Shown: piece by piece, positions 23,204 to 46,347 of the stretch
Position numbering within the stretch: the first letter of the stretch is position 1
Layout: every line of letters starts with the position of its first letter
Source of the DNA: Chelativorans sp. J32
GTDB taxonomy: Bacteria > Pseudomonadota > Alphaproteobacteria > Rhizobiales > Rhizobiaceae
NCBI RefSeq assembly: GCF_000518985.1
Contig: NZ_JAEQ01000007.1
Location: forward strand, 62,001-126,000
Direction of reading: 5' to 3'
DNA length: 64,000 nucleotides
Made by a program: the position numbers and the translations under genes
The notes under the pieces: generated by a model
Seen by the model: the letters and a program-made list of their open reading frames with translations, nothing else
The model's database searches: none
Told to the model about the DNA's origin: nothing

Positions 23204-24391
23204 ATGACCGCTTCCTTTGTCCAGCACCTGTCCCGGGAGATCGAAGGCCTGAAGGACGCCGGGCTCTATAAAAGCGAACGCGTGATCACCTCGATGCAGT
23301 CCGCCGAGATCGAGAGCGGCGGCAAGAAGGTGCTCAATTTCTGCGCCAACAACTATCTGGGTCTCGCCGACAATGAGGAACTGCGGGAAGCGGCCAAGGC
23401 TGCGCTCGACCGCTATGGATACGGAATGGCCTCTGTTCGCTTCATCTGCGGCACGCAGGAGGAGCACAAAGCGCTGGAAAAGCGTATTTCCCAGTTCCTG
23501 GGATATGAAGACACGATCCTCTATTCCTCATGCTTCGACGCCAATACCGGCCTGTTCGAAACACTGCTGGGGCCCGAAGACGCGATCATCTCCGACGCGC
23601 TCAACCACGCCTCGATCATCGACGGCGTCCGCCTTTGCAAGGCGCGACGGCTGCGCTACGCCAACAATGACATGAAGGAACTCGAGGAGCGGCTCAAAGA
23701 GGCGCAGGACGCCCGCTTCCGGCTGATCGCCACCGACGGCGTCTTCTCCATGGACGGTATCATCGCCAACTTGCAGGCAATCTGCGACCTAGCCGAAAAA
23801 TACGACGCCATGGTGATGGTGGACGACAGCCATGCGGTGGGCTTCGTCGGTGCTCATGGCCGCGGCACGCCGGAATATTGCGGCGTGGAAGGCCGGGTGG
23901 ACATCGTCACCGGAACGCTAGGCAAAGCGCTGGGCGGAGCCTCCGGCGGCTACACCAGCGGGAAAAAAGAAGTGGTGGAGTGGCTCCGGCAGCGGTCGCG
24001 TCCCTATCTTTTCTCCAACACGCTGGCTCCGGTCATCGCCGCGGCTTCGCTTAAGGTATTCGACATCGTCGAGCAGGGAGACGATTTGCGCCGCAAGCTC
24101 TACGGCAATGCGGAACGCTTCCGCGACAAGATGACAAGGCTCGGCTTCACGCTCGCGGGCCAAGGGCACCCGATCATCCCCGTGATGATCGGAGACGCCG
24201 CATTGGCCGCGAAAATGGCCGAACGGCTGCTCGATCACGGGATTTACGTGATCGGCTTCTCCTTCCCCGTGGTTCCAAAGGGCGAAGCGCGTATCCGGAC
24301 CCAGATGTCAGCCGCCCATTCGGACGAGGATATCGATCGCGCGGCGGAAGCCTTCGGGATGGTTGGCCGGGAACTGGGGCTGGTCTCCTGA
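23204..24391 (+). CDS. kbl: Glycine C-acetyltransferase (2-amino-3-ketobutyrate CoA ligase)
   Basis: PLP enzyme that splits 2-amino-3-ketobutyrate with CoA into glycine and acetyl-CoA. The 395 residues include [13 protein letters not shown], the Asp-His stretch [11 protein letters not shown], and the PLP-lysine motif [22 protein letters not shown] precedes ATG 23204. It is followed after 21 bases by tdh; together they form the two-step threonine-to-glycine pathway. The 174-base divergent region shared with queF presumably holds the promoter, but I cannot point to its boxes. Confidence 0.97.
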
Positions 24392-24412
24392 CCGCCAGAT
24401 AAGGAACAGAAA

Positions 24413-25447
<1,035 letters not shown>

Positions 25448-25529
25448 CGACCAGAGGAAAAGCCAGGCAGAATGCACGACCGCGGGCGTCTTTCGCCCCG
25501 GTCCCGGACAAAGCACCGATTGTTCTAGG

Positions 25530-25552
25530 AAGGCGCTCTCGGAAAGCGCCTT
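25530..25552. terminator. Bidirectional hairpin between tdh and the convergent gene
   Basis: AAGGCGCT (25530-25537) and AGCGCCTT (25545-25552) make a perfect 8-bp stem with a 7-base loop, flanked by short A/T-rich ends. It could terminate tdh and the reverse-strand gene ending at 25572. Confidence 0.55.
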
Positions 25553-25571
25553 AGCTGAGGCACGCCCAGGA

Positions 25572-25907
25572 TTAGCCCTTCATCTCCTGCACCAGCCCGT
25601 AAAGATTGAGGCAGCGGGCACCGCTGCGGCAGTAGGCCAGCACCGGCCGCGGCAGGTCTTCCAGGATTGCCGCCATGTCCCGTACATTCTCCTCCGTAAT
25701 GGCGCCGGAGACGACAGGCAGAAAGCGGAATTCGAGGCCGGCTTCGCGCGCGGCTTCCTCCACGGCATCGTGGGGGACTGCGCCATCTTCCGTATCCGGG
25801 CGATTGCAGACGATGCTCTTGAAGCCCGCGCCCGCGATCTCCGCGACCTGCACAGGGGCGATCTGCCCTGTAACAGCGAAATCCTCGTTGACCTTGCGAA
25901 TATCCAT
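25572..25907 (-). CDS. DUF442 / TIGR01244-type phosphatase-sulfurtransferase-like protein
   Basis: A 111-residue cytoplasmic protein. It begins MDIRKVNEDFAVTGQIAP, and the central part includes FKSIVCNRPDTEDG. The active-site loop near the C-terminus is AYCRSGARCLNLY. The loop has the CRxGxR form of rhodaneses and of the N-terminal domain of Blh-type proteins, where it may act as a phosphatase or sulfur transferase. I start at ATG 25907 because AAAGGAAAG lies just upstream; longer in-frame starts add unrelated residues. It lies 29 bases downstream of the PcaD-like gene on the same strand, so the two may be one transcript. Confidence 0.82.
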   Translation of the reverse strand: MDIRKVNEDFAVTGQIAPVQVAEIAGAGFKSIVCNRPDTEDGAVPHDAVEEAAREAGLEFRFLPVVSGAITEENVRDMAAILEDLPRPVLAYCRSGARCLNLYGLVQEMKG

Positions 25908-25936
25908 CTGCTTTCCTTTCAAAGCGCCCGACGGTG

Positions 25937-26731
25937 TCAGCCTATTCCAACCTCTTTCAGGAAGGAACGGATGAGCGTTGCTGTTCTTTCCGGTTGCTCG
26001 ATGCACGGAAGATGCCCGGCACCCTCGACGATCTCGAAGCGCGCGCCCTCGATGAGCGAGGCCAATTCCCGAACCAAGGCGGGTGGCGTCGAGCCATCCT
26101 GATCTCCAACGATGCAGAGCGTGGGCAGCTTCAGCGCGCGCGTGGATTCCGTCAGATCCGCATCGCGAAGGGCCGCGCAGGTTCCGGCATAGCCGTCGGG
26201 GCTCTGGCGCGTCAGCATGGCGAGATAGCCCACATAATCCGGGTTCTCGAGCGAGCGGAAACCCGGCGTGAACCAGCGCTGCATGATGCCCTCGGCCATG
26301 GGCGCAATGCCGCTCTCAATGGCCGTTTTGATGCGGGTATTCCAAAGATCGTCATTGCCGATCTTCTGGGCCGTGTCGCAAAGCACCAGGGCTTGAACCA
26401 GATCGGGCCTGAACGCGGCGAGCCCTTGGGCGATCATTCCACCAACCGATAGGCCGACAATCGTTGCGCTGGTAACCTTAAGATGGTCGAGCAGGGCGGC
26501 AACATCCTTCACGTGATCCGTCATCGCGTAAGGCTGAGGCGTGGCCTCCGAAAGCCCATGCCCGCGCTTGTCATAGAAGACGAGGCGAAACTCGCCCTCT
26601 AGCAGGGTGGCCATATCATCCCAGATCCGGAAGTCTGTGCCGAGCGAGTTGGAGAAGACGAGAACCGGGCGCCCCTCAGGCCCCCGTGTCCTGTAATGCA
26701 GGACAACTCCGTTCACGCGCGCAAATGGCAT
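25937..26731 (-). CDS. pcaD: 3-oxoadipate enol-lactonase-like alpha/beta hydrolase
   Basis: A 264-residue alpha/beta hydrolase. Ser in GLSVGGMIAQGLA is the nucleophile, GDQDGSTPP carries the acid, and GAGHLPCIEQP the histidine. The sequence from MPFARVNGVVLHYRTRGP onward, with FSNSLGTDFRIWDDM and YDKRGHGLSEA, is the PcaD pattern. PcaD hydrolyses 3-oxoadipate enol-lactone in the protocatechuate branch of the beta-ketoadipate pathway. No other pca gene is in the window, so the physiological substrate is uncertain. GAGGGGTG precedes ATG 26731. Only the next gene, the rhodanese-like protein, appears to travel with it. Confidence 0.8.
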   Translation of the reverse strand: MPFARVNGVVLHYRTRGPEGRPVLVFSNSLGTDFRIWDDMATLLEGEFRLVFYDKRGHGLSEATPQPYAMTDHVKDVAALLDHLKVTSATIVGLSVGGMIAQGLAAFRPDLVQALVLCDTAQKIGNDDLWNTRIKTAIESGIAPMAEGIMQRWFTPGFRSLENPDYVGYLAMLTRQSPDGYAGTCAALRDADLTESTRALKLPTLCIVGDQDGSTPPALVRELASLIEGARFEIVEGAGHLPCIEQPERTATLIRSFLKEVGIG

Positions 26732-26854
26732 GTCACACCCCTCATCATCCGGCTTGGTGTCTAAGGGAAAAGCCGCGGGCGCGTCAATGTCGCCGCAGAT
26801 CGGAATGTCTGCCGGCTCAGCCACACCGGCGGCGGAGCCAAAGGCCCGGGATAG

Positions 26855-26875
26855 TTTTTTCGATTTGCGAAAAAA
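26855..26875. promoter_or_regulatory. Inverted repeat, candidate operator
   Basis: TTTTTTCG (26855-26862) and CGAAAAAA (26868-26875) are perfect inverted copies around ATTTG. It stands 25 bases before a TTGACA box. A dimeric regulator site is the likeliest reading; a factor-independent terminator is possible but no gene ends into it. Confidence 0.4.
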
Positions 26876-26899
26876 ACAGCGATCGCCGGACCAAATCGG

Positions 26900-26928
26900 T
26901 TGACACCTGAAAGGCGGTAAATCAATCT
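26900..26928 (+). promoter_or_regulatory. Possible promoter of the sugar-catabolic operon
   Basis: A perfect TTGACA at 26900-26905 is followed after 17 bases by a weak -10 (CAATCT, 26923-26928). The support is the -35 and its position between two candidate operators. Confidence 0.3.
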
Positions 26929-26932
26929 GCGA

Positions 26933-26946
26933 TGTAATCGATTTCA
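26933..26946. promoter_or_regulatory. LacI-family-type operator palindrome
   Basis: TGTAATCGATTTCA is a 14-base palindrome with one mismatch pair and a central CG, the form bound by LacI/GalR-family sugar repressors. It lies just downstream of the possible promoter at 26900-26928. No LacI-type gene lies in the window, so the regulator would be encoded elsewhere. Confidence 0.4.
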
Positions 26947-27023
26947 GAGGGTTTCTCGCTCTCGTTCGATTGGGTGGAGGCCAAAAAAGGGGGACCGCTC
27001 AAAGCGGCTCCAAGGGAGGAAAA

Positions 27024-27365
27024 ATGGCGGCGCAGGCGGGCGGCAGCCCGGGAGTCACCGCCGATATGCTGGCGAAATGCATGCGTCCGACGGCGGTCTC
27101 GGCCGAAGGGAGGCCCGTGGCTCGGCGCCGCGGCCGCGATGCCGCTCTACTCGTCATTGTCGATTTGCGGACGGCATCGCCTAAGGATGACATCGCGCGA
27201 AAGCTCGCTCGGCTTCTGAACGGATCGGCGCCGCCGGCCCGAACGGAACACCGGCAGGAGACGTCAATCGAGCCTGATCCAGAACATCCCTCCCGCTATG
27301 CGGTTTTGACTTGTCAGAGCTGCAGCCATCCATCTGGACCGCCATGCGTTGGGAGATCGACATGA
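27024..27365 (+). CDS. Unrecognised 113-codon open frame leading the sugar operon
   Basis: A possible gene of unknown function. ATG 27024 stands behind AAGGGAGGAAAA, one of the better ribosome binding sites in the region. The stop TGA (27363-27365) overlaps the ATG of the next gene (27362) by 4 bases, the arrangement of translationally coupled genes. The protein starts MAAQAGGSPGVTADMLAKCM and is rich in Arg, Ala and Pro. It carries a short hydrophobic patch (AALLVIVDL) and four cysteines, two of them in a CQSC near the end. I recognise no domain. It may be real, a decayed gene, or untranslated leader; the signals at both ends favour translation. Confidence 0.35.
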   Translation: MAAQAGGSPGVTADMLAKCMRPTAVSAEGRPVARRRGRDAALLVIVDLRTASPKDDIARKLARLLNGSAPPARTEHRQETSIEPDPEHPSRYAVLTCQSCSHPSGPPCVGRST

Positions 27366-28123
27366 CCGAGTTTTCCTATCAGCTTTATTCCTCCCGCGAA
27401 TTCGGGCCCCTCAGCGAGACGCTCAGTATGCTCAAAAGGTTGGGTTATACGCAGGTTGAAGGCACCGCCGGGAGCTACACGGATCTGCCGGCGCTGAAGG
27501 AAGCACTGTCAGAAGCGGGAATCACGATGACGTCCGGCCATTTCGGGCTGGATATGCTCGAAAGAGAGCCAGCCAAGGTTGTCCAGATCGCCAGGACAGT
27601 CGGGATGAAAGCAGCCTATTGCGCATTCCTTCCGCCGGACCAGCGTCCGGTGGATGCCGCCGGCTATGCCAGGTTTGGGGAAAGGCTTCAGAAAGCAGGC
27701 GAGCCGCTCAGCAGGGCGGGGATCGTTTTCGGATGGCACAACCACGACTTCGAGTTCCGACCGCTTTCAGATGGATCGATCCCGCTGGACGAAATTTTCC
27801 GTGGAGGTCCGGAGCTTTCCTGGCAGGCGGACGTTGCGTGGATCGTGCGAGGCGGAGCCGATCCGATCGAATGGATCGGGAAATATGCTGGCCGTGTTTC
27901 CTCTATCCACGTGAAGGACCTCGCGCCGGCGGGCGAGGCCGAGGATGAAGGCGGTTGGGCCGATGTCGGCACCGGCACGATCGACTGGGAGATGATTTTG
28001 AACTTTGTGCAGGACAGAACGGATGCACGTTTCTTCATCATGGAGCACGACAATCCGAGTGATGACGAACGTTTCGCGCGCCGTTCGATCGAGAACGCAC
28101 GGACCTTTCTAAGGGTGCAGTAA
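27362..28123 (+). CDS. Sugar phosphate isomerase/epimerase family TIM-barrel protein
   Basis: A 253-residue xylose-isomerase-like (AP-endonuclease 2 superfamily) barrel. Metal-site residues are expected in VFGWHNHDFEF, WQADVAWIVRGG, SSIHVKDLAP and FIMEHDNPSDD, giving the His/Glu/Asp set of the fold. These proteins isomerise or epimerise sugars and keto-sugars, usually not phosphorylated despite the name. The start ATG 27362 has GGGAG upstream. The stop TAA shares one base with the ATG of the following Gfo/Idh/MocA gene, so the two are surely co-translated. The substrate is unknown. Confidence 0.87.
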   Translation: MTEFSYQLYSSREFGPLSETLSMLKRLGYTQVEGTAGSYTDLPALKEALSEAGITMTSGHFGLDMLEREPAKVVQIARTVGMKAAYCAFLPPDQRPVDAAGYARFGERLQKAGEPLSRAGIVFGWHNHDFEFRPLSDGSIPLDEIFRGGPELSWQADVAWIVRGGADPIEWIGKYAGRVSSIHVKDLAPAGEAEDEGGWADVGTGTIDWEMILNFVQDRTDARFFIMEHDNPSDDERFARRSIENARTFLRVQ

Positions 28124-29271
28124 TGACCAACAAGCTGGGCGTAGGAGTGATCGGCTGCGGCCACATTTCGGCCGTCTATATGCGGCTTGCGCCGCTCTTT
28201 CGCGGCATAGAGATGCGCGCCTGCGCAGATGTCGATCCGGAGGCGGCAAGAAAGCGCGCCGACGAATTCAAGCTGCGCCAGGAAACGGTGGAGGGGCTGC
28301 TTCAGGCCGACGACATCGACATAGTCGTCAATCTCACCATCCCCGCCGCCCATTACGAAGTGTCCCGCCGGGCGATCGAAGCCGGCAAGCATGTCTATTC
28401 CGAGAAACCCTTCGTGCTGTCGGTCGAGGACGGAAAGGCGCTGATCGAACTGGCGAAGAGGAGGGGGGTGCGCGTCGGATCGGCCCCCGACACGTTCCTC
28501 GGCGGCTCGCATCAGCTTGCGCGTAGCGTGATCGACTCCGGCGCGGTCGGGAAGATCGTCAGCGGCACCTGCCATGTGATGAGCCATGGCATGGAACACT
28601 GGCATCCCAACCCGGACTTCTTCTTCAAGCCGGGCGCCGGGCCGGTGCTGGACCTAGGCCCCTATTACGTAACCAATCTCGTCCAGCTCTTGGGCCCGGT
28701 GAAGCGGGTGGGCGCACTCGCGTCCATCCCGGCAAAGGAACGGGTCATCCGTTCTCAGGCCCGATATGGAGAAAGGATCATTGTCGAAACGCCAACCACC
28801 ATCCATGCTGTCATGGAATTTGTGAGCGGCGCAGTGGTGACGCTTGGTGCGTCCTGGGACGTTTGGCACCACAAGCACGCGAACATGGAGCTCTACGGTG
28901 AGAAAGGCTCCCTCCATCTTCCCGACCCGAATTTCTTCGGCGGCGATCTCATCGTCACCAACGAGGAGAAGGTGGTGGACATGCCCAAGTGGAATCACCC
29001 GCTGGGCGTTTTGAATCAACAGGCGAATGACGGGCAGATGCTGGCCAATTATCGCACGGCGGGCCTAGCCGACATGGCCTTGGCCATTCTGGAAGGCCGG
29101 CCCCATCGGTGCTCGCCGCAGATGGCCCTGCACACGATCGACGTCATGACCTCGATCCTCAAATCCGCACAGACGGGCAGCTTCGTCGATCTCACGACCA
29201 CTTGTGAGCGGCCGGATATGCTCGACGAAAAGGCTGCGCGGCAATTGTTGGCGGAAAGGGAGTTTGCATGA
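28123..29271 (+). CDS. Gfo/Idh/MocA family oxidoreductase
   Basis: A 382-residue NAD(P)-dependent sugar dehydrogenase. The Rossmann loop is VGVIGCGHISAVYM and the catalytic-lysine motif YSEKPFVLS. The C-terminal alpha/beta domain contains VLDLGPYYVTNLVQLLG and then the region LYGEKGSLHLPDPNFFGGD. It shares one base with the upstream isomerase gene and overlaps the downstream aldo/keto reductase by 4 bases. An oxidation at the sugar ring coupled to the isomerase is the natural reading, with unknown substrate. Confidence 0.9.
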   Translation: MTNKLGVGVIGCGHISAVYMRLAPLFRGIEMRACADVDPEAARKRADEFKLRQETVEGLLQADDIDIVVNLTIPAAHYEVSRRAIEAGKHVYSEKPFVLSVEDGKALIELAKRRGVRVGSAPDTFLGGSHQLARSVIDSGAVGKIVSGTCHVMSHGMEHWHPNPDFFFKPGAGPVLDLGPYYVTNLVQLLGPVKRVGALASIPAKERVIRSQARYGERIIVETPTTIHAVMEFVSGAVVTLGASWDVWHHKHANMELYGEKGSLHLPDPNFFGGDLIVTNEEKVVDMPKWNHPLGVLNQQANDGQMLANYRTAGLADMALAILEGRPHRCSPQMALHTIDVMTSILKSAQTGSFVDLTTTCERPDMLDEKAARQLLAEREFA

Positions 29272-30311
29272 GCTGGGAGCCTTCGCCGAGACGTTACGAG
29301 AAGATGCAATACCGGCGCTGTGGCCGTTCCGGGCTGAAGTTGCCCGCGATCTCGCTAGGGCTCTGGCACAATTTCGGCGAAGATCGTCCGTACGAGCTGA
29401 AGCAGGCGATTTGCCGAACCGCATTCGATCTCGGCATCACCCATTTCGATCTCGCCAACAATTACGGGCCGCCGCCGGGCGCGGCCGAGGAAGCCTTCGG
29501 CGAGATCCTGCGCACCGACTTTGCCGGGCATCGCGATGAGCTCATCATTTCCTCGAAGGCAGGCTATCTGATGTGGCCGGGCCCCTATGGGGAATGGGGA
29601 AGCCGCAAATATCTGATCGCCAGCTGCGACCAGAGTCTGAAGCGTATGGGTCTCGACTATGTCGATATCTTCTATTCCCACCGCTTCGATCCGGACACAC
29701 CGCTGGAAGAAACGATGATGGCGCTCGATCACATCGTGCGATCGGGTAGGGCGCTTTATGTCGGCATCTCGTCCTACAACTCCCGTCGCACGCGCGAGGC
29801 GGTGGCCATCCTCGAAGAACTCGGCACGCCCTGCCTCATCCATCAGCCGAGCTATTCCATGCTCAATCGCTGGGTGGAAGACGATGGCCTTCTGGATACT
29901 CTCGAAGAGCTGGGCGTCGGCTGTATAGCGTTCTCCCCGCTCGCCCAAGGCATGCTCACGACCAAATATCTGGGCGGTATCCCGGCGGAGAGCCGTGCCG
30001 CGCAGGGCAAATCGCTCCGGAAGGAATTCATCAACGAGAACACGATCGGAAACATCCGACGTCTGAACGAGATCGCAGAGCGCCGCGGTCAAAGCCTGGC
30101 GCAGATGGCGGTCGCCTGGGTTCTGCGTGGAGGGCGGGTGACGACAGCCTTGATCGGTGCAAGCCGCCCGGAGCAGGTAGTGGAGATCGCCGCAGCGCTG
30201 GAGACTGCCGATTTTACGGTAGACGAACTGGCCGAGATCGATGCCTACGCCAGGGAAGCCGACATCAATCTCTGGGCCGCCTCTGCGGAAAGGCGGGGAC
30301 CGCAGCGGTGA
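29268..30311 (+). CDS. Aldo/keto reductase, L-glyceraldehyde-3-phosphate reductase (YghZ/GPR) type
   Basis: A 347-residue NADPH-dependent TIM-barrel reductase. It shows the AKR catalytic set: FDLANNYGPPPGAAE (Asp and Tyr), SKAGYLMWPGPYGEWGSRKY (Lys) and YSHRFDPDTPLEETM (His). The insertion GPYGEWGSRKYL and the early RRCGRSGLKLPAISLGLW are characteristic of the YghZ/GPR subgroup (AKR14), which reduces glyceraldehyde phosphates and methylglyoxal. In this operon it may instead reduce a keto-sugar or aldehyde product. Confidence 0.9.
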   Translation: MSWEPSPRRYEKMQYRRCGRSGLKLPAISLGLWHNFGEDRPYELKQAICRTAFDLGITHFDLANNYGPPPGAAEEAFGEILRTDFAGHRDELIISSKAGYLMWPGPYGEWGSRKYLIASCDQSLKRMGLDYVDIFYSHRFDPDTPLEETMMALDHIVRSGRALYVGISSYNSRRTREAVAILEELGTPCLIHQPSYSMLNRWVEDDGLLDTLEELGVGCIAFSPLAQGMLTTKYLGGIPAESRAAQGKSLRKEFINENTIGNIRRLNEIAERRGQSLAQMAVAWVLRGGRVTTALIGASRPEQVVEIAAALETADFTVDELAEIDAYAREADINLWAASAERRGPQR

Positions 30312-30412
30312 TCGCCATGGCTGCGGGTTGATTTCGGCGTCCGATCAAGGACAAACGATCGCGATGGGCGGGGGTCCATTGTGTGTTCGCGGCATTCGAG
30401 GAGGCACGGTTC

Positions 30413-31471
30413 ATGCCTAAGACAATGAAGGGGCCCGGAATTTTCCTGGCGCAATTCGCGGGGGACCATGCCCCGTTCGACACTTTGCCGAACATCGCCC
30501 GCTGGGCGGCGGGTCACGGTTACAAGGGAATCCAGATACCCAGCTGGGACAAGCGTCTGTTCGACCTGAAAAAGGCGTCCGAGTCCGCGGCCTATTGCGA
30601 GGAGGTGAAGGGTATCTGCAGGGACGCCGGCGTCGAGATCACTGAACTCTCAACCCATTTGATCGGGCAGCTTGTCGCGGTGCATCCTGCGTATGACATG
30701 CCCTTCGACGGGTTCGCGCCGGAAAGCGTCCACGGCAATCCGAAGGCGCGGCAGGAATGGGCGGTGGATCACATGCTTCATGCCGCCAAGGCCTCCCGCA
30801 ATCTTGGGCTGGATGTCAGCGTCTCCTTTTCCGGCGCGCTTGCCTTCCCCTATCTTTATCCTTGGCCGCAGCGGCCGGAAGGGCTCATCGAAGAGGCGTT
30901 CACGGAGCTCGCGCGCCGGTGGAAACCGATCCTCGACGCCTATGAGGACGCCGGGGTGGATGTAGCCTTTGAGCTGCACCCCGGCGAGGATATCTTTGAC
31001 GGCGCGACCTTCGAGATGTTCCTCGATAAGCTTGGCGGCCACAAGCGCTGCGCGATCAATTACGATCCCTCCCACTTCCTGTTGCAGCAACTCGATTATC
31101 TTGCCTTCATCGACCTTTACCACGAACGCATTTCGGCCTTCCACGTGAAGGATGCCGAATTCAATCCGGACGGTCGCCAGGGGGTCTACTCCGGTTATCA
31201 GCCTTGGGTGAAACGTGCCGGCCGCTTTCGCTCGCTCGGCGACGGACAGGTGGATTTCACGGGCATCTTCTCCAAGCTCGCCCAATATGGTTATGACAGC
31301 TGGGCCGTGCTCGAATGGGAGTGCGCGCTGAAAGATCCGGAACAGGGCGCAGCTGAAGGCGCGCCCTTCATCGAGCATCACATCATCCGCGTGACCGAGA
31401 AGGCATTCGATGATTTTGCCGCCGGCAAGCGTGACCGTTCGAGCCTGCGGGCCATGCTTGGTATCGGTTGA
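30413..31471 (+). CDS. Sugar phosphate isomerase/epimerase family protein, long form
   Basis: A 352-residue xylose-isomerase-like barrel, about 100 residues longer than its neighbour at 27362. Metal-ligand positions are seen in VAFELHPGEDIFDG, CAINYDPSHFLLQQ, SAFHVKDAEF and AVLEWECALKDPEQG. The extra length is an insertion at about residues 85-125 and a long C-terminal tail. The size and motif set resemble the large subunit of oxidative glycoside and C-glycoside lyases, which act on 3-keto-glycosides; a true isomerase is equally possible. GAGGAGG stands 9 bases before ATG 30413. The next gene starts 14 bases downstream. Confidence 0.85.
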   Translation: MPKTMKGPGIFLAQFAGDHAPFDTLPNIARWAAGHGYKGIQIPSWDKRLFDLKKASESAAYCEEVKGICRDAGVEITELSTHLIGQLVAVHPAYDMPFDGFAPESVHGNPKARQEWAVDHMLHAAKASRNLGLDVSVSFSGALAFPYLYPWPQRPEGLIEEAFTELARRWKPILDAYEDAGVDVAFELHPGEDIFDGATFEMFLDKLGGHKRCAINYDPSHFLLQQLDYLAFIDLYHERISAFHVKDAEFNPDGRQGVYSGYQPWVKRAGRFRSLGDGQVDFTGIFSKLAQYGYDSWAVLEWECALKDPEQGAAEGAPFIEHHIIRVTEKAFDDFAAGKRDRSSLRAMLGIG

Positions 31472-31485
31472 ACAAGGAGGAAGAC

Positions 31486-32676
31486 ATGGTCTCCGCATCC
31501 ACGACGACAGCCACTGGAAGACCGATCCGACTCGGTATGGTGGGTGGCGGGCAGGGCGCGTTCATTGGTGCCGTTCATCGCATGGCCGCTCGTCTCGATG
31601 GCCATTTCGCACTCGTCGCCGGAGCACTGTCCTCCGATCCGGAGCGTGCGAAGGCATCGGGAGCTGAATTGGGCATCGATCCTGACCGCTCCTATGGCAG
31701 TTTCTACGAAATGGCCGAGAAGGAGGCTGCAAGGCTGGACGGTATCGAGGCGGTGAGCATCGTCACCCCCAACTATATGCATTATCCGGCGGCAAAGACG
31801 TTCCTGGAAGCCGGAATTAACGTCATCTGCGACAAGCCGCTGACCTCAAGCCTGGATGACGCGAAGGCGCTGGTAGAGACGGTGAAGAAGAGCGGTAAGC
31901 TCTTCGTGCTCACCCACAATTATTCCGGCTATCCGATGATCCGTCAGGCGCGGCAGATGGTCGGCGAGGGTAGGCTCGGCGACATCATCCTTGTCCAGGC
32001 GGAATATCCGCAGGACTGGCTGGCCGAACCCGTGGAGCAGACCGGCAACAAGCAGGCATCCTGGCGCACGGACCCGACGCGTTCGGGAGCGGGGGGGGCA
32101 ACGGGGGACATCGGCACCCACGCCTATCAGCTGGTCACCTTCGTCACCGGTCTGCGCGCTGAGAGCGTGGCGGCCGATCTCGATCGCTTCGTCGCTGGCC
32201 GGCAGCTCGATGACAATGCCCATGTGATGCTGCGCTTCGCCGAGCGCGATGGGAAACGCGCCAAGGGCATGATCTGGGTGAGCCAGGTAGCGCCAGGAAA
32301 CGAAAACGGATTGAAACTCCGGGTTTACGGGACCAGGGGCGGGCTGGAATGGGTGCAGGCCGATCCCAATTATCTTTGGTTCACGCCACTAGGTGAGCCG
32401 AAGCGTCTGCTGACGCGCGGCGGCGCCGGGGCGGGGCCTGCGGCTGCCGCCGTCACCCGCATTCCGGGAGGTCACCCCGAAGGCTATCTGGAGGCCTTCG
32501 CCACGCTTTACACCGAGGCGGCCGGGGCCATACGCGCTCTTCAAAGCGGCGCGTCGGTTTCCGGCGAATTGATGCTGCCCACCGCCGAAGACGGGCTCGA
32601 AGGCATGCGCTTCATCCATGCCTGCGTGCGCTCCTCCCAGAATGACGCTGCCTGGACGAGATTGGACTCCCTTTAG
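31486..32676 (+). CDS. Gfo/Idh/MocA family oxidoreductase
   Basis: A 396-residue NAD(P)-dependent dehydrogenase with Rossmann loop LGMVGGGQGAFIGAVHRMAA and catalytic lysine in INVICDKPLTSSLDDAK. The distal motif GATGDIGTHAYQLVTFVTGL contains the Asp and His expected in the active site. AAGGAGGAAG precedes ATG 31486. It is paired with the long isomerase-family gene, repeating the isomerase-dehydrogenase pairing seen at 27362-29271. Such pairs oxidise a sugar ring hydroxyl and then rearrange or cleave the keto-sugar. The substrate is not known. Confidence 0.9.
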   Translation: MVSASTTTATGRPIRLGMVGGGQGAFIGAVHRMAARLDGHFALVAGALSSDPERAKASGAELGIDPDRSYGSFYEMAEKEAARLDGIEAVSIVTPNYMHYPAAKTFLEAGINVICDKPLTSSLDDAKALVETVKKSGKLFVLTHNYSGYPMIRQARQMVGEGRLGDIILVQAEYPQDWLAEPVEQTGNKQASWRTDPTRSGAGGATGDIGTHAYQLVTFVTGLRAESVAADLDRFVAGRQLDDNAHVMLRFAERDGKRAKGMIWVSQVAPGNENGLKLRVYGTRGGLEWVQADPNYLWFTPLGEPKRLLTRGGAGAGPAAAAVTRIPGGHPEGYLEAFATLYTEAAGAIRALQSGASVSGELMLPTAEDGLEGMRFIHACVRSSQNDAAWTRLDSL

Positions 32677-32802
32677 AAAAGGCAAGTGCGCCTGAAGGGG
32701 GGCTGCCATGCGCTCTCGTCGTTGCACCCTTGCGTTTTTGGGAATTGACGATTGCCCGTTTGTCGCCGAAGTCTCTGATGCTTGAGGAAGAGGAGGAGAC
32801 AT

Positions 32803-33810
32803 ATGGCGGCCGAGCCGAGGAAGATTGCCGTTCACGAGGGACGAGACGTCTTCGAGGCGACGCTTGCCAGTGAAGCTGGCGTCCGCATCTCCGTCATCAA
32901 CTATGGCGCTATCGTCCGCGACTGGCAGGTACCGGTCGGCAGTGACATGCGAAGCGTCGTACTGGGGTTCGACCGTTTCGAGGATTACCTTGAGCACAGC
33001 CCCTATTTTGGGGCGATTGTCGGTCGGGTGGGAAACCGCATCTCCGATGCTCGCTTCGCATTGGACGGAAAAGAGTACCAGCTCCAGGCGAATGAAGGCA
33101 CGCATCATCTCCATGGCGGAGAGAGGGGGCTGAGCAATCAGGTCTGGGAGATGGAGGCGTTGTCGGACGATGCCGTCCGCCTCACGCTGACGAGCCCCGC
33201 CGGAGAAATGGGCTACCCCGGAAAGCTGGATGTTTCGGTGATCTACAGGCTCAGGGGGAAGGCCCTGGAGATCGATATCGACGCGACGACTGACGCGCGT
33301 ACCCCGGTCAACATCTTCCAGCATAACTATTTCAACCTCCTAGGCGAAGGTGATGTTCGAAACCACACATTGTGGCTCGCAGCCAACGCGTACACGGTGC
33401 GAAGCGCGGACCTGATACCGACGGGCCGGATCGAACCTGTGGCCGGGAGCCATTTCGACTTCCGGAAACCGCGTCCGCTCTGCGATCCGCAGGGCGAGCC
33501 AATCGCTTATGATAACAATCTCGTTCTCGATACCGGGCGCGATCTTTCCGACCCGGTGGCGATCCTGAGGGCACCGGACGATTCACTCACGCTCACGCTC
33601 AAGACCGACCAGCCGGGCCTGCAGCTCTATACGGGCAGCAAGATCAATCTTTCAGTTCCTGGCCTCGGCGGGCAGCATTATCCTCGCTTCGCGGGCGTCT
33701 GCCTCGAGGACCAGCATTTTCCGGATGCCATCAACCATCCCCATTTCCCATCCTGCCTTGTCACGCCCGACAGGCCGTACAGGCACTGGTGTGAAATCGA
33801 GATAGGGTAA
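32803..33810 (+). CDS. galM: Aldose 1-epimerase
   Basis: Interconverts alpha and beta anomers of free aldoses. The 335-residue protein has LHGGERGLSNQVWEM, the catalytic histidine in NIFQHNYFNLLG and the catalytic glutamate in VCLEDQHFPDAINHPHFP. No signal peptide is seen, so it acts in the cytoplasm. GAGGAGGAG precedes ATG 32803. It is the last gene of the rightward group that begins at 27024, after a 126-base gap, and meets purU head to head 8 bases later. A mutarotase here implies that free, unphosphorylated sugars are intermediates of the pathway. Confidence 0.92.
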   Translation: MAAEPRKIAVHEGRDVFEATLASEAGVRISVINYGAIVRDWQVPVGSDMRSVVLGFDRFEDYLEHSPYFGAIVGRVGNRISDARFALDGKEYQLQANEGTHHLHGGERGLSNQVWEMEALSDDAVRLTLTSPAGEMGYPGKLDVSVIYRLRGKALEIDIDATTDARTPVNIFQHNYFNLLGEGDVRNHTLWLAANAYTVRSADLIPTGRIEPVAGSHFDFRKPRPLCDPQGEPIAYDNNLVLDTGRDLSDPVAILRAPDDSLTLTLKTDQPGLQLYTGSKINLSVPGLGGQHYPRFAGVCLEDQHFPDAINHPHFPSCLVTPDRPYRHWCEIEIG

Positions 33811-33818
33811 GCCTCGGC

Positions 33819-34679
33819 TCACCCCTTCGCGAACACCACCGTCTTCATTCCGTTCAGCATCACGCGGCTTTCAAGATGAAGCTTGACGGCCCGCGCCAGC
33901 ACCCGGCTCTCGATATCCCGACCGGCCGCTACGAAATCATCGGGGCTCATCGCGTGGGTTACGCGCTCCGTTTCCTGCTCGATGATCGGGCCCTCATCCA
34001 GGTCCGGTGTCACGTAGTGCGCCGTCGCGCCGATCAGCTTGACGCCGCGCTCATGCGCCTGATGGTAGGGCTTCGCGCCCTTGAAGCTCGGCAGGAAGGA
34101 ATGATGGATATTGATGATCTTGCCGAACAGCCGGCTCGAAAGCCCGTCCGAAAGCACCTGCATGTAGCGGGCCAGGATGATCAGATCCGAGCCGGTTTCC
34201 CGGAACAGCGCAAGCAGCTTCTCCTCTTGCTCCGCCTTGTTCGCCTTCGTCACCGGCCAGCAGTGATAGGGAATGCCCTCGGCGTCGGCTGTGCGCCGGG
34301 AATCCTCATGGTTCGATACGATCGCCGCCACCTCTGCATCGAGCCAGCCCACCCGGATCTGATAGAGGAGATGGAGAAGCGCGTGGTCGAATTTTGAGAC
34401 CATGATGATGATTCTGGGCTTCCGGGAGCGGTCGGCGAGCGCAGTTCGCATATCGAAGCGCGCAATTGCCGGCTCCAGCGCACGTGCGATCGTGTCGCGA
34501 TCGATCGTCTCCGGCACCGTGAAGGAGATGCGCATGAAAAAGCGGTTCGTCCGCTGGTCCCAGAACTGATTGGATTCGGCGATGTTAGCGCCAAGCGCCG
34601 CGAGTTCCGTCGTCACCGTGGCCACGATACCTGGCCGGTCTTCGCAGGAGAGGGTGATGTCGAATGTCTTCTCGGTCAT
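33819..34679 (-). CDS. purU: Formyltetrahydrofolate deformylase
   Basis: Hydrolyses 10-formyl-THF to formate and THF, balancing one-carbon pools and feeding formate to PurT. Residues 1-80 are an ACT-type regulatory domain (FDITLSCEDRPGIVATVTTEL). Residues 90-286 are the formyltransferase fold, with the catalytic set NIHHSFLPSFKGAKPYHQA, GATAHYVTPDLDEGPI. The start ATG 34679 matches the conserved N-terminus; the upstream in-frame ATG adds 19 unrelated residues. The ribosome binding site is weak (GGAACG). It is not functionally related to the neighbouring sugar genes. Confidence 0.95.
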   Translation of the reverse strand: MTEKTFDITLSCEDRPGIVATVTTELAALGANIAESNQFWDQRTNRFFMRISFTVPETIDRDTIARALEPAIARFDMRTALADRSRKPRIIIMVSKFDHALLHLLYQIRVGWLDAEVAAIVSNHEDSRRTADAEGIPYHCWPVTKANKAEQEEKLLALFRETGSDLIILARYMQVLSDGLSSRLFGKIINIHHSFLPSFKGAKPYHQAHERGVKLIGATAHYVTPDLDEGPIIEQETERVTHAMSPDDFVAAGRDIESRVLARAVKLHLESRVMLNGMKTVVFAKG

Positions 34680-34999
34680 GGGCGTTCCAACTATGCTGGA
34701 TGAGGCGCAGGAGACTGCTGCTCCAAAGGACGCCACGTCTTAATACCAGCCGGGCATGAAGCCAATGGCTAAGACCCGGCAATTCCTTGCAGGCTACGCC
34801 GCAGGGATGCGTTGACCGTGGCGGGCTGGCGGATCATTCTCGACGCTAAACCCTCGCGGAGCGGCCATGAACAGGCCATGTTCCCACTTGCGGTGTGTAC
34901 TCAGGCGTCGGCGCTGCGCCTGGTTCGCTCCATCTGCCCCAGCCGCGGCTTATGGCTTGGCGCCATGCAAGGGGGATAGCTTGACCCCCTGGAAAGGAA

Positions 35000-35135: not shown

Positions 35136-36074
35136 ATGAAGAAGTTTCTGTTAGGAGTGGCATTCTCGGCCGTTCTGACATCGTCGGCTTTCGCACAGAC
35201 GATCGGTGTCTCCATGTCGGAGCTCGACAACTTTCTCACAATCCTGCGCAACGGCATTGCCGATTATGCAAAGGAGAAGGGCGTCGAGGTGCAGATCGAG
35301 GTGGCTGAAAAGGATCCGGCCAAGCAGTTGAGCCAGATCCAGAATTTCATCGCTTCCGGCGTTGATGCGATTATCGTGAATCCGGTGGACACGGACGCCA
35401 CGGCCGCCCAGTCGAAGATCGCAGCTGATGCGGGCATCCCTCTGGTCTATGTAAATCGGCAGCCTGCGAACCTGGACAGCCTGCCCGACAACCAGACCTT
35501 TGTCGGCTCGAACGAGGTGGATTCTGGCACCCTGGAGACGAAGGAAGTCTGTCGGCTCCTGAAAGAGAAAGGCAAAGGAGATGGCGCGAACATCGTGGTA
35601 CTGATGGGCCAGCTCAACAATCAGGCAGCGCGACAGCGCACACAGGACATCCACGATGTGATCGCCACGGACGAATGCTCCTTCATGAAGATCGTCGAGG
35701 AGCAGACCGCCAATTGGTACCGCACGGAGGCGACCGACCTCATGAACAACTGGCTCTCCGCTGGCGTGGAATTCGATGCGGTCGTCTCCAACAATGACGA
35801 GATGGCTCTCGGTGCGATCCAAGCCATGAAGGCGGCCGGCATGTCCATGGAAGACGTCGTTGTGGGTGGCGTGGACGCGACCCCCGACGCGCTTGCGGCC
35901 ATGAAAGCGGGAGATCTCGACGTGACGGTTTTCCAGAACGCCGCCGCACAGGGCAGCGGCGCCGTGGATGCAGCCCTGAAGCTCTCGCAAGGCGAGAAGC
36001 TCGGCAATGTGGTGTGGGTGCCCTTCGAGCTGGTGACGCCTGAAAACATGGACAAGTATATGGGTCAGAACTGA
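35136..36074 (+). CDS. Sugar ABC transporter periplasmic binding protein, probably for inositol
   Basis: A 312-residue periplasmic binding protein of the ribose/RbsB class. The signal peptide is KKFLLGVAFSAVLTSSAFA with cleavage before QTIG. The mature protein has the repeated Rossmann-like lobes: GVSMSELDNFLTILRNGI, then VDAIIVNPVDTDATAAQSKI, and VVSNNDEMALGAIQAMKAAG in the second. AGGAGGAGCAAGG precedes ATG 35136. Three things point to an inositol importer of the IbpA/IntA kind: the IolR-type operator upstream, iolG directly downstream of the importer, and the iol operon beyond. Ribose or another sugar is not excluded by sequence. Confidence 0.88.
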   Translation: MKKFLLGVAFSAVLTSSAFAQTIGVSMSELDNFLTILRNGIADYAKEKGVEVQIEVAEKDPAKQLSQIQNFIASGVDAIIVNPVDTDATAAQSKIAADAGIPLVYVNRQPANLDSLPDNQTFVGSNEVDSGTLETKEVCRLLKEKGKGDGANIVVLMGQLNNQAARQRTQDIHDVIATDECSFMKIVEEQTANWYRTEATDLMNNWLSAGVEFDAVVSNNDEMALGAIQAMKAAGMSMEDVVVGGVDATPDALAAMKAGDLDVTVFQNAAAQGSGAVDAALKLSQGEKLGNVVWVPFELVTPENMDKYMGQN

Positions 36075-36141
36075 TCACAGGCGATCGCTCCACGGGCGAC
36101 AATAGCGGCGCCGAAGCGCGGCCGCTTGATGGGCGAAGCGG

Positions 36142-36162
36142 CCGGGCCCCAAGGGGGCCCGG
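36142..36162 (+). terminator. Intercistronic GC hairpin between binding protein and permease genes
   Basis: CCGGGCCCC (36142-36150) and GGGGCCCGG (36154-36162) form a perfect 9-bp GC-only stem with a 3-base loop, 67 bases after the binding-protein stop. There is no U-tract. It probably stabilises the upstream message or partly terminates, so that more binding protein than permease is made. Confidence 0.7.
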
Positions 36163-36186
36163 ATGGCACTGCTCCGGGAGGTAGTC

Positions 36187-37203
36187 ATGGCCACGACAAC
36201 AACGACGACCGCTGTGGGCGAGCCGAAGCGGCGCGTCCTGCCGCCCGAGTTCAATGTCTTCATCGGCCTCCTTGTTATCGCGGGGATATTCGAACTGCTC
36301 GGCTGGTTCGTGCGCGGCGACAGCTTCCTGTTCAACCTGCAGCGCGTCAGCATCATCATCCTTCAGGTTTCGGTGATCGGAATCATTGCCGTCGGCATGA
36401 CGCAGGTGATCATCACTGGAGGTATCGATCTTTCGTCGGGCTCCGTGCTGGCCATGACGGCATTCATCGCCATGAGTTTCGCGCAGGTCTCCTCCAACGC
36501 CCGCGCGGTCTACCCCTCGCTCACCGACCTGCCGGTCATCGTTCCAGTCGCCATTGGTCTCGGAGTCGGTCTTTTGGCCGGACTGATCAATGGGGTTTTG
36601 ATCGCCTACACCAAGATACCTCCCTTCATCGCCACACTCGGCATGATGGTGACGGCGCGCGGCGTGGCGAATTGGTACACACGCGGGCAGCCGGTTTCTT
36701 TTCCGACCGAGAGCTATGCCTCGATCGGGCAGGGCATGATGCCGGTGATCATTTTCGCCATCGTGGCGGTGCTCTTTCACATCCTGCTCAAATATACGCT
36801 TTATGGCCGGCGCACTTATGCGGTCGGCTCCAACGAGCAGGCTGCACGCGTGTCCGGCATCAATGTCGAGCGGCATCTGATGCTGGTCTATGCAATTGCC
36901 GGCGGCCTTTCTGCGCTCGCAGGCATCGTGCTCTCGGCGCGCGGGCAGACCGCCCAGGGCGGCATGGGCTTGATGTACGAACTACAGGCGATCGCCATGA
37001 CCGTGATCGGCGGCACCTCCCTCACGGGCGGCCGTGGATCGATCATCGGCACCACGCTCGGCATGATCATCTTCGGCGTGATCACCTCCGGTTTCACCTT
37101 CATCCGGGTGAGCGCCTATTACCAGGAGATCATCATGGGCATCATCATTGTCGGCGCCGTGGTGCTCGACGTCTACCGCCAGCGCCTGCGCGGCCGGATC
37201 TAG
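36187..37203 (+). CDS. Sugar ABC transporter permease
   Basis: A 338-residue inner-membrane permease of the RbsC/BPD_transp_2 family with about nine to ten hydrophobic helices. Typical stretches are VGMTQVIITGGIDLSSGSVLAM, here read over two helices, and IPPFIATLGMMVTARGVANWYTRG. The cytoplasmic coupling region is YAVGSNEQAARVSGINVERHLMLVY. GGGAGG precedes ATG 36187. It follows the binding-protein gene and precedes the ATPase by 9 bases, the B-C-A order of the rhizobial FrcBCA fructose importer rather than the enteric RbsACB order. Confidence 0.92.
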   Translation: MATTTTTTAVGEPKRRVLPPEFNVFIGLLVIAGIFELLGWFVRGDSFLFNLQRVSIIILQVSVIGIIAVGMTQVIITGGIDLSSGSVLAMTAFIAMSFAQVSSNARAVYPSLTDLPVIVPVAIGLGVGLLAGLINGVLIAYTKIPPFIATLGMMVTARGVANWYTRGQPVSFPTESYASIGQGMMPVIIFAIVAVLFHILLKYTLYGRRTYAVGSNEQAARVSGINVERHLMLVYAIAGGLSALAGIVLSARGQTAQGGMGLMYELQAIAMTVIGGTSLTGGRGSIIGTTLGMIIFGVITSGFTFIRVSAYYQEIIMGIIIVGAVVLDVYRQRLRGRI

Positions 37204-37212
37204 GAGGCGAAG

Positions 37213-37989
37213 ATGGACGGAAAGATCATCCTGCGCACGGAAGCCCTGACGAAACACTATGGCGGCGTGCGCGCGCTGGAGGAGGCCAATTTTGAGCTGC
37301 GCGAAGGCGAGCATGTCGCCGTGGTCGGCGATAACGGCGCTGGCAAATCCACCTTCGTGCGCCAGATCACGGGGGTGGAGCAGCCCACAAGCGGCACGAT
37401 TTTCTTCGATGGGCAGGAGGTGCATTTCAAGAGCCCGATCGAGGCGCGGGATGCCGGCATTGAGACCGTGTTCCAGAACCTGGCGCTTGCGGACGATCTG
37501 GATGTGCCCGCTAATCTCTTTCTCGGCCGCGAAGAGATCTATTTCAATCTCGGCCCTTTCAGCTTTTTGAACGAACGCAAGATGATGGAGCGCACGGAGG
37601 AGGCGCTGCGGGCGACGGGGGTGAAGATCCCGGACCTCAGAAACAAAATCCGCAACATGTCGGGCGGACAGCGGCAATGCGTGGCGATCTCCCGATCGGC
37701 AAGCTTCGCGTCGAAGCTGATTATCATGGACGAGCCTACGGCAGCGCTCGGCGTGCAGGAGACAGCGCAGGTGGAGAACATCATCCGGGGCCTCAAGAGA
37801 CGCGGAGTGCCCCTGATCCTCGTCAGCCACAATCTGCGGCAGGTTTTCGATCTGGTGGACCGCATCTGGATCTTCCGCCGCGGCCGTATCGTCGGCGCGG
37901 TGGATAGGAACAAGACGGACGGTAACGAGATCGTCTCCCTGATTACGGGCGTCAAGACAGGCGTGGGGGAGGAGGCAGCCTTCATCTGA
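37213..37989 (+). CDS. Sugar ABC transporter ATP-binding protein, single-domain
   Basis: A 258-residue ATPase that powers the importer. Walker A is GDNGAGKST, the Q-loop lies in ETVFQNLAL, the signature is MSGGQRQ, Walker B IIMDEPTAAL and the switch histidine VSHN. Most ribose-class importers use a fused double ATPase of about 500 residues. This one has a single cassette, as in FrcA-type systems, and would act as a homodimer. AGGAGG precedes ATG 37213. The following iolG is 56 bases away on the same strand. Confidence 0.93.
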   Translation: MDGKIILRTEALTKHYGGVRALEEANFELREGEHVAVVGDNGAGKSTFVRQITGVEQPTSGTIFFDGQEVHFKSPIEARDAGIETVFQNLALADDLDVPANLFLGREEIYFNLGPFSFLNERKMMERTEEALRATGVKIPDLRNKIRNMSGGQRQCVAISRSASFASKLIIMDEPTAALGVQETAQVENIIRGLKRRGVPLILVSHNLRQVFDLVDRIWIFRRGRIVGAVDRNKTDGNEIVSLITGVKTGVGEEAAFI

Positions 37990-38045
37990 GTTCGGCTCGA
38001 GACCGTATCACTCCATTTGCATCATGTTTCTCAGCGAGGAATTCC

Positions 38046-39050: not shown

Positions 39051-39090
39051 CATTCTCAGCCGGGTTCCAGACAACATCTTGTTGGTTTTC

Positions 39091-39115
39091 GGGGTGGTCG
39101 GGTGGTGACCACCCC
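39091..39115 (+). terminator. Hairpin after iolG
   Basis: GGGGTGGTC (39091-39099) and GACCACCCC (39107-39115) form a perfect 9-bp stem with a 7-base loop, 41 bases after the iolG stop. No U-run follows. Confidence 0.6.
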
Positions 39116-39210
39116 TAAAGCGCTGAACCTTTTTCCTCTCCGAAGGTTAGAAGATGGAGGCCGCCTACCGGACGCGGCGGCAATGTTCTTTTGAAGAGTA
39201 GGAGAGATCC

Positions 39211-39471
39211 ATGAGGAAGCTTATCACTGCGATTGGCGCCGCGACACTGCTTGCTGTTTCCGCTCTGCCCGGTCTGGCAGAGGAGGTCACCGGTGTCGTT
39301 CAGGACATCAACGAACGCGGCAATACACTCAAGCTGCAGGATGGGAGCGAGTATGTCCTGCCCGAGACGTTCAGCCCCGATACCGTGAAGATCGGCGACA
39401 CGGTTGTTATCACCTACGACCAGGGTGAAGGCGGCCAGAAGGTCGCGACGGAAGTCAAAGCTCAACGTTGA
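39211..39471 (+). CDS. DUF1344 small secreted protein
   Basis: An 86-residue protein with a Sec signal peptide (RKLITAIGAATLLAVSALPGLA, shown only up to the cleavage region) and a small beta-rich mature domain. The mature domain reads EEVTGVVQDINERGNTLKLQ, then YVLPETFSPDTVKIGDTVVITYDQGEGG. This is the DUF1344 pattern, common in rhizobia, periplasmic and without assigned function. GTAGGAGAG precedes ATG 39211. It is bounded by hairpins on both sides and is probably its own transcript, unrelated to inositol. Confidence 0.85.
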   Translation: MRKLITAIGAATLLAVSALPGLAEEVTGVVQDINERGNTLKLQDGSEYVLPETFSPDTVKIGDTVVITYDQGEGGQKVATEVKAQR

Positions 39472-39479
39472 TTCGCAAC

Positions 39480-39519: not shown

Positions 39520-39524
39520 ATTGG

Positions 39525-40646: not shown

Positions 40647-40672
40647 GCTACTCCTCCTTGCCGCCGCCGAAG

Positions 40673-46327: not shown

Positions 46328-46347
46328 ACACCGTCTATATTCGCTCA

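What the first reader, a model, noticed from the sequence alone, without database searches (positions are those of the whole stretch)
27024..33810. Kinase-free sugar pathway built from two dehydrogenase/isomerase pairs
The operon holds TIM-barrel + Gfo/Idh/MocA (27362-29271), an aldo/keto reductase, a second longer TIM-barrel + Gfo/Idh/MocA pair (30413-32676), and a mutarotase. There is no kinase, aldolase, glycosidase or transporter. Gfo/Idh/MocA enzymes that oxidise a glycoside to its 3-keto form, followed by a TIM-barrel protein that eliminates the aglycone, are known for O- and C-glycosides and levoglucosan-type sugars. The 352-residue barrel is the size of such lyase large subunits. The locus could be an undescribed oxidative glycoside- or rare-sugar-degrading route. 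This is inference from gene content.
Basis: inference. Interest (0 to 1): 0.7.

Follow-up and report, generated by a model that had tools for sequence, protein, structure and literature searches.

The report
Reduced oxidative glycoside-cleavage operon
This operon most likely cuts sugar-linked compounds by oxidising the sugar, splitting the bond and reducing the sugar again, a chemistry already described in Agrobacterium, and here it seems to have lost the transporter and glycosidase that its close relatives keep beside it.

Summary
The oxidative glycoside reading is largely right, but the chemistry is already described and the roles fall differently. The short barrel (253 aa), not the long one, is the probable lyase: it is 40% identical to Agrobacterium AtOGE, a 3-keto-O-glucoside beta-eliminase, and keeps its metal ligands and catalytic His. 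The 352-aa barrel is 67% identical to AtHYD, a 2-hydroxy-3-keto-glucal hydratase. Gfo1 sits next to the lyase where Agrobacterium has an FAD dehydrogenase, so it is the likely C3 oxidant; Gfo2 the likely 3-keto-sugar reductase. The missing transporter and glycosidase look like secondary losses: a syntenic sister genome carries four CUT1 transporter genes and a GH43 beta-xylosidase in the two gaps, 12 of 12 other same-genus loci have the transporter, 11 of 12 the GH43, and no GH43 was found in this genome. The retained genes, lyase and Gfo1 most clearly, changed faster here than in the sister. Substrate and activity are untested; beta-glucosides or beta-xylosides are the candidates. Verdict: a reduced variant of a known non-hydrolytic glycoside pathway.

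The parts
26900..26943 (+). conserved upstream block: TTGACA and ATGTAATCGATT (LacI-operator-like, a recalled label), shared with the sister genome where it precedes the transporter genes
   Evidence: comparison with L050; the sigma-70 consensus scan found no promoter here
27010..27024 (+). ribosome-binding-site block (CCAAGGGAGGAAAAA) that in the sister precedes the solute-binding-protein gene
   Evidence: 15 of 15 identical to the block in L050
26948..27361 (.). site of loss 1: four CUT1 transporter genes (SBP, two permeases, ATPase) present in the sister are absent; no supported gene remains
   Evidence: blastn collinearity breaks between window 26947/27362 and L050 5563/10002; no Pfam match of the 27024-27365 frame
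27362..28123 (+). barrel1, OGE-like 3-keto-glycoside beta-eliminase (lyase)
   Evidence: 8bvk E 5.8e-47; 93/233 identity, H126, H128, D157, H183, E228 kept; top Foldseek entries are a 3-keto-beta-glucopyranoside-1,2-lyase and AtOGE
28123..29271 (+). Gfo1, Gfo/Idh/MocA dehydrogenase, probable C3 oxidant of the glycoside
   Evidence: Pfam; next to barrel1 in 20 of 20 fetched loci of relatives; best PDB sequence match DgpA1 9m3d
29304..30311 (+). aldo/keto reductase of the YghZ (AKR14A) type, role unknown
   Evidence: PRK09912 above cut-off; 3n6q E 3.3e-139
30318..30388 (.). site of loss 2: a GH43 beta-xylosidase gene present in the sister is absent
   Evidence: collinearity breaks between window 30317/30389 and L050 12959/14666; no PF04616 match in own genome
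30413..31471 (+). barrel2, AtHYD-like 2-hydroxy-3-keto-glucal hydratase
   Evidence: 8ro4 E 1.9e-162, 232/348 identity
31486..32676 (+). Gfo2, probable 3-keto-sugar reductase
   Evidence: adjacent to barrel2; a Gfo2 homologue in 71 of 80 loci found with barrel2; PDB 3v5n E 1.7e-179, named only oxidoreductase
32803..33810 (+). aldose-1-epimerase (mutarotase), GalM family
   Evidence: PF01263 and PRK11055 above cut-off

Best explanation
The operon is a reduced copy of a non-hydrolytic glycoside-degradation cassette. Proposed steps: Gfo1 oxidises C3 of the sugar of a glycoside with NAD; barrel1, a divalent-metal lyase, removes the aglycone by beta-elimination and leaves a 2-hydroxy-3-keto-glycal; barrel2 adds water to give the 3-keto sugar; Gfo2 reduces it to the free aldose with a nicotinamide cofactor, so that the two redox steps roughly cancel; GalM equilibrates the anomers and the aldose goes to a kinase or xylose isomerase elsewhere in the genome. 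Shown here: relationship of barrel1 and barrel2 to AtOGE and AtHYD, conservation of the AtOGE active site, and gene association. Inferred: the roles and cofactors of Gfo1 and Gfo2, the substrate, and any role of the aldo/keto reductase. In this lineage the cassette has most likely lost its dedicated CUT1 importer and a GH43 beta-xylosidase, so it either works on a substrate that enters another way or is under relaxed constraint.
For: Barrel2 is 67% identical to AtHYD. Barrel1 is 40% identical to AtOGE and keeps the residues that PMC10628242 names as metal ligands and catalytic His; H126, H128, D157, H183 and E228 are invariant in 29 of 29 aligned sequences, the window's included; its model (pLDDT 96.4) has a 3-keto-beta-glucopyranoside-1,2-lyase and AtOGE as top two Foldseek rows. 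Barrel1 and Gfo1 are neighbours in 20 of 20 fetched loci of relatives; among 80 hydratase loci 14 have the pair, 13 of them with a CUT1 ATPase. The hydratase also lies with a DUF6379 gene and a GMC oxidoreductase in Sphingobium; that DUF6379 is the C-glycoside-deglycosidase beta subunit is recalled. Losses. Own genome has a xylose isomerase (71% to the Paracoccus one) and a glucokinase.
Confidence: 0.65

Rival explanations
1. The locus is a remnant. After the importer and GH43 were lost, the cassette lost most of its purpose in this strain and is drifting, barrel1 and Gfo1 first, while barrel2 and Gfo2 may survive because they serve other 3-keto sugars. This is compatible with the best explanation as history and disputes only present function.
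For: Two gaps against the sister genome; dN to six same-genus outgroups is 1.33-1.38 times the sister's for barrel1 and Gfo1 (medians), against 1.01-1.13 for AKR, barrel2, Gfo2 and GalM and 0.89-0.99 for three inositol genes with two outgroups; derived changes 22 vs 6 and 21 vs 6. At sites invariant in all other sequences the excess also appears in barrel2 (6 vs 0) and Gfo2 (8 vs 0).
Against: All six frames are open; dN/dS against the sister is 0.04-0.13, in the range of four flanking genes; metal ligands and catalytic His are kept; purU, a flank, also has median ratio 1.16 and up to 1.88 with single outgroups.
Confidence: 0.3
2. Redox-epimerase reading: each Gfo/barrel pair oxidises a rare sugar at C3, epimerises the keto sugar and reduces it, as recalled for the E. 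coli YcjQ/R/S pathway, with no glycosidic bond cleaved.
Against: Barrel2 is 67% identical to a protein deposited as a hydratase; the lyases lie 6 to 7 Z units above YcjR for barrel1; the cassette's importer is of the CUT1 type, in 14 of 20 fetched loci with a GH43 in the region, which points to glycosides or oligosaccharides.
Confidence: 0.12
3. The operon belongs to inositol metabolism and degrades inositol isomers or inositol glycosides, using the neighbouring transporter.
For: An inositol cluster lies directly downstream of purU; weak TIGR04379 (IolE) scores of both barrels.
Against: The IolE scores are 40.9 and 58.3 bits against a cut-off of 290; IolG, IolC-DUF2090, an IolD-like enzyme, another PF01261 barrel in IolE position and IolB are already present; the adjacency is shared synteny in the sister and another genome, partly in a third, and a genome with the whole cassette has no such inositol genes in the next 20 kb (L164).
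Confidence: 0.06
4. C-glycoside deglycosidase, the first reader's proposal: the 352-aa barrel is a lyase large subunit.
Against: Barrel2 is AtHYD-like and matches no CGD chain at E 0.001; no gene-sized gap is left in the operon for a small beta subunit; a genome search with CGDB PF19906 found nothing, but its controls found nothing either, so that search is inconclusive.
Confidence: 0.02

Closest known systems
Agrobacterium tumefaciens O-glucoside pathway: GlycDH, AtOGE (PDB 8BVK), AtHYD (PDB 8RO4), Gfo reductase
   Same: A lyase of the AtOGE type with the same named active-site residues, a hydratase 67% identical to AtHYD, and a Gfo enzyme next to the hydratase.
   Different: The FAD-dependent GlycDH is missing from the operon; a second Gfo enzyme stands next to the lyase. 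An aldo/keto reductase and a mutarotase are added; relatives add a CUT1 transporter, often a LacI regulator and a GH43.
Levoglucosan pathway LgdA-LgdB1-LgdB2-LgdC of Bacillus smithii
   Same: Oxidation, elimination, hydration and reduction by four enzymes (PMC7676230, abstract); two Gfo-family and two PF01261 enzymes, and an ABC transporter in the region (PMC10066097, passages).
   Different: Gfo1 and Gfo2 score 61.2 and 101.2 bits on the levoglucosan dehydrogenase model, cut-off 650. LgdB1 and LgdB2 were not aligned here.
3-keto-beta-glucopyranoside-1,2-lyases AL1 (Alistipes) and BT1 (Bacteroides) (PDB 8TCD, 8TCR, 8TCT)
   Different: Only 23-25% identity.
C-glycoside deglycosidase DgpA/DgpB/DgpC
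   Same: Gfo-type dehydrogenase with a PF01261-like barrel; DgpA1 is Gfo1's best PDB sequence match.
   Different: No room for a beta-subunit gene in the operon; Tyr replaces the DxGxH His in Gfo1; barrel1 has 253 residues, DgpC chains 323-325.

Membership tests
A. tumefaciens-type O-glycoside beta-elimination pathway | Lyase with AtOGE metal ligands His132, Asp163, His189, Glu233 and catalytic His134 | tested here: met
   H126, D157, H183, E228 and H128 in barrel1; invariant in 29 of 29 aligned sequences
A. tumefaciens-type O-glycoside beta-elimination pathway | AtHYD-type hydratase | tested here: met
   232/348 identical to 8ro4
A. tumefaciens-type O-glycoside beta-elimination pathway | FAD-dependent GlycDH in the operon | tested here: not met
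   None of the six operon proteins is a GMC oxidoreductase. Four PF00732 matches lie elsewhere in the genome; only one was looked at, and judged by eye it lies beside aminotransferase- and methyltransferase-like frames. No PF13618 match. A GlycDH elsewhere is not excluded
A. tumefaciens-type O-glycoside beta-elimination pathway | Gfo enzyme that reduces 3-keto-glucose | not tested
   Gfo2 is adjacent to the hydratase, but the Agrobacterium Gfo sequence was not at hand for comparison and activity cannot be tested here
C-glycoside deglycosidase | Small beta subunit (CGDB, recalled as DUF6379) next to the large subunit | tested here: inconclusive
   None of the six operon proteins matches it; the genome search found nothing but no control genome matched either
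C-glycoside deglycosidase | Long barrel is the lyase large subunit | tested here: not met
   Barrel2's PDB matches at E 0.001 are AtHYD, SCO6571 and an IolE, three in all
Levoglucosan pathway | Levoglucosan dehydrogenase LgdA | tested here: not met
   NF052479 61.2 and 101.2 bits, cut-off 650
Myo-inositol catabolism | IolE inosose dehydratase | tested here: not met
   TIGR04379 40.9 and 58.3 bits, cut-off 290

The most novel reading that the evidence does not exclude
The full cassette of the relatives is a non-hydrolytic pentoside pathway: beta-xylosides or xylose-bearing plant glycosides are imported by the CUT1 system, oxidised at C3 by Gfo1, eliminated by barrel1 to a 2-hydroxy-3-keto-xylal, hydrated and reduced to xylose, with GH43 beta-xylosidase trimming in parallel and XylA/XylB downstream. 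No pentose version turned up in the held literature (0 papers for five spellings of 3-keto-xylose or 3-keto-xyloside). Support is association only: GH43 in 11 of 12 other same-genus loci, xylA near 7 of 80 hydratase loci, xylA and xylB with the pair in Azospirillum, and a Paracoccus plasmid with lyase pair, hydratase pair, xylA and GH43 together. Against it: outside this lineage the GH43 is uncommon (over 60% identity in 2 of the 80 loci), none of the 14 loci with the lyase pair among the 80 has xylA in the fetched flanks, and the characterised homologues act on glucosides.
Probability: 0.15. Interest if true: 0.6.

Novelty: new variant of a known kind. Interest (0 to 1): 0.36.

Why it matters
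It replaces a guess from gene content with characterised relatives for two of the steps and shows that in a set of alphaproteobacterial loci an OGE-type lyase is paired with a Gfo dehydrogenase where Agrobacterium has an FAD enzyme, together with a dedicated importer and, in this genus, a beta-xylosidase.

Tried and rejected
Rejected: C-glycoside lyase role of the long barrel; levoglucosan and inositol membership; insertion in the sister as the reason for the gaps, because 12 of 12 other same-genus loci carry the transporter and so do the 8 fetched loci from outside the genus. The leader 26948-27361 was compared with the sister's transporter region and gave, beyond the ribosome-binding block, only short scattered matches, so its origin is open. 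A sigma-70 scan gave no promoter at the operon start. In one search the iolPerm row (dN 2.4) looks like a frame error of my extraction and was dropped; kbl, tdh and pcaD gave no outgroup there. The genome search for CGDB found nothing in own or control genomes and is inconclusive. Of the 29 relatives' loci given, 20 were fetched with wider flanks and 9 were not. Paper searches found the papers cited; the 2024 Angewandte paper on the A. tumefaciens enzymes is not held and was seen only as a reference in PMC13273386 (passages). PMC9007349 was seen in passages and not used.
Full report
What is there. The window (G000:C42:62001-126000) holds six open plus-strand genes between a pcaD-like hydrolase gene (minus, 25937-26824) and a purU-like gene (minus, 33819-34736; Pfam): barrel1, Gfo1, an aldo/keto reductase, barrel2, Gfo2 and an aldose-1-epimerase. 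A myo-inositol cluster follows from 35136 to 47380: solute-binding protein, permease, ATPase, IolG (above its cut-off), an RpiR-type regulator, IolC-DUF2090, an IolD-like enzyme, a PF01261 barrel in IolE position and IolB.

Barrel2. It matches 8ro4, deposited as 2-hydroxy-3-keto-glucal hydratase AtHYD of A. tumefaciens, at E 1.9e-162 (title), 232 of 348 identical. In PMC10628242 AtHYD is inactive on 3-keto-phlorizin, and preliminary evidence made it the hydratase.

The two Gfo enzymes. Gfo1 has DgpA1 (9m3d) as best PDB sequence match, E 8e-23. It has Tyr181 where DgpA1 has the His of DxGxH (alignment), in 27 of 27 aligned sequences, and Asp36 after the second strand, also in 27 of 27. That such an Asp favours NAD, and that a Tyr serves in glucose-fructose oxidoreductase and in the sugar 3-ketoreductase KijD10, is recalled, not from a call. 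Its fold matches lie close together among many family members (pLDDT 89). Gfo2 keeps DIGTH (sequence) and matches 3v5n, named only oxidoreductase. The role of each is inferred from its place: Gfo1 next to the lyase, Gfo2 next to the hydratase.

Relatives. A barrel1 search found a match at E 0.001 in 56 of 121 genomes, own genome included; the weakest are distant barrels. I fetched 20-kb regions for 20 of the 29 loci that it gave beside the window's own. All 20 have Gfo1 next to barrel1 and the four CUT1 transporter genes upstream in the region; 16 have the aldo/keto reductase, 14 the GH43 and 12 barrel2. The 12 same-genus loci among them (12 of 15 same-genus genomes have barrel1) all have the transporter directly in front of barrel1, 11 of 12 the GH43. 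Seven plasmid loci picked from two searches show the same order of transporter, barrel1 and Gfo1; 4 of the 7 also have barrel2 and Gfo2 in the stretch. Flanks differ in length, so these are lower bounds.

Two losses. Blastn of window 24001-34800 against the sister G011 (L050) is collinear apart from short unaligned intergenic stretches and two large gaps: 4.4 kb of the sister (solute-binding protein, two permeases, ATPase) is missing between window 26947 and 27362, and 1.7 kb (GH43) between 30317 and 30389. The upstream block with TTGACA and ATGTAATCGATT and the ribosome-binding block of the absent first gene remain. The GH43 is a beta-xylosidase by sequence (1yrz, E 1.9e-174; PF04616 and PF17851). 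This genome has no PF04616 match, while 11 of the 12 other same-genus genomes with barrel1 have one, and 0 of the 3 without barrel1. Its nearest match to the absent binding protein is 27% identical. Barrel1 is its only match to the lyase at E 0.001. Completeness is listed as 100, so an assembly gap is unlikely but not excluded.

Constraint. Against the sister, dN/dS is 0.127, 0.098, 0.059, 0.042, 0.075 and 0.076 for barrel1, Gfo1, AKR, barrel2, Gfo2 and GalM; four flanking genes give 0.036-0.137. Relative to six same-genus outgroups, dN of the window exceeds that of the sister by a median factor 1.38 for barrel1 and 1.33 for Gfo1, but 1.09, 1.13, 1.10 and 1.01 for AKR, barrel2, Gfo2 and GalM, 1.16 for purU (5 outgroups) and 0.93, 0.99 and 0.89 for three inositol genes (2 outgroups). 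Derived changes, window against sister, are 22 vs 6 in barrel1 (p 0.004), 21 vs 6 in Gfo1 (p 0.006), 13 vs 9 in AKR, 7 vs 1 in barrel2 (p 0.07) and 11 vs 5 in Gfo2; counting only sites invariant in all other sequences, 8 vs 1, 10 vs 2, 8 vs 6, 6 vs 0 (p 0.031) and 8 vs 0 (p 0.008) (five genes, no correction; the test assumes that window and sister are closest kin, which shared synteny and highest identity suggest). So all five genes tested lean to the window, the lyase and Gfo1 most clearly. This fits relaxed constraint or a changed substrate; the time of the losses is not known.

Mechanism. The best reading is C3 oxidation (Gfo1), beta-elimination (barrel1), hydration (barrel2) and reduction (Gfo2), then mutarotation. 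The steps for barrel1 and barrel2 rest on homology with enzymes of PMC10628242; those for the Gfo enzymes are inference. The route needs no kinase of its own because it ends in a free aldose; the genome has a glucokinase and a xylose isomerase. The substrate could be a beta-glucoside, as in Agrobacterium, or a beta-xyloside, which the absent GH43 and the xylA neighbours hint at.

Inositol. The neighbouring inositol cluster is syntenic in the sister and another genome, partly in a third, and not found in the next 20 kb of a fourth that has the whole cassette, so adjacency is no evidence of shared function.

Novelty. The chemistry and two of the enzyme families are known. The pairing of an OGE-type lyase with Gfo1 inside a CUT1/LacI/GH43 cassette was not found in the held papers by the searches. 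PMC10628242 mentions growing diversity of such operons and its supplement was not read, and the 2024 paper on this pathway is not held, so it may be in print.

Noticed in passing
window 39525-40646 (-): A Gfo/Idh/MocA gene between IolG and the RpiR-type regulator of the inositol cluster resembles levoglucosan dehydrogenase (329.8 bits, cut-off 650); it is kept in that place in two related genomes, L163 and L166. Perhaps another inositol dehydrogenase.
   Followed up: partly
L157 (Sphingobium sp. RAC03 plasmid): One cluster holds a DUF6379 gene (recalled as the C-glycoside-deglycosidase beta subunit), a GMC oxidoreductase, a GH43, a Gfo enzyme, an AtHYD-like hydratase and a GH1: a candidate combined O- and C-glycoside locus.
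   Followed up: no
L159 (Azospirillum brasilense p3); L156, L160: The hydratase-Gfo2 pair stands with an ABC transporter of another type, in L159 with xylA and xylB, and without any annotated lyase nearby, so the pair may have a second role with monosaccharides.
   Followed up: partly
L139, L140, L144, L145, L148, L150 (Pelagibacteraceae): Six uncultured Pelagibacteraceae contigs carry the hydratase-Gfo2 pair near distant ABC-transporter homologues, which surprised me for genomes known to be small.
   Followed up: no
L057 and L167 (G012): Another same-genus genome keeps the transporter, barrel1, Gfo1 and AKR, but has no GH43 match and no barrel2 or Gfo2 in L057 or the next 20 kb, perhaps a second reduction of the cassette; barrel2 elsewhere in that genome was not sought.
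   Followed up: partly
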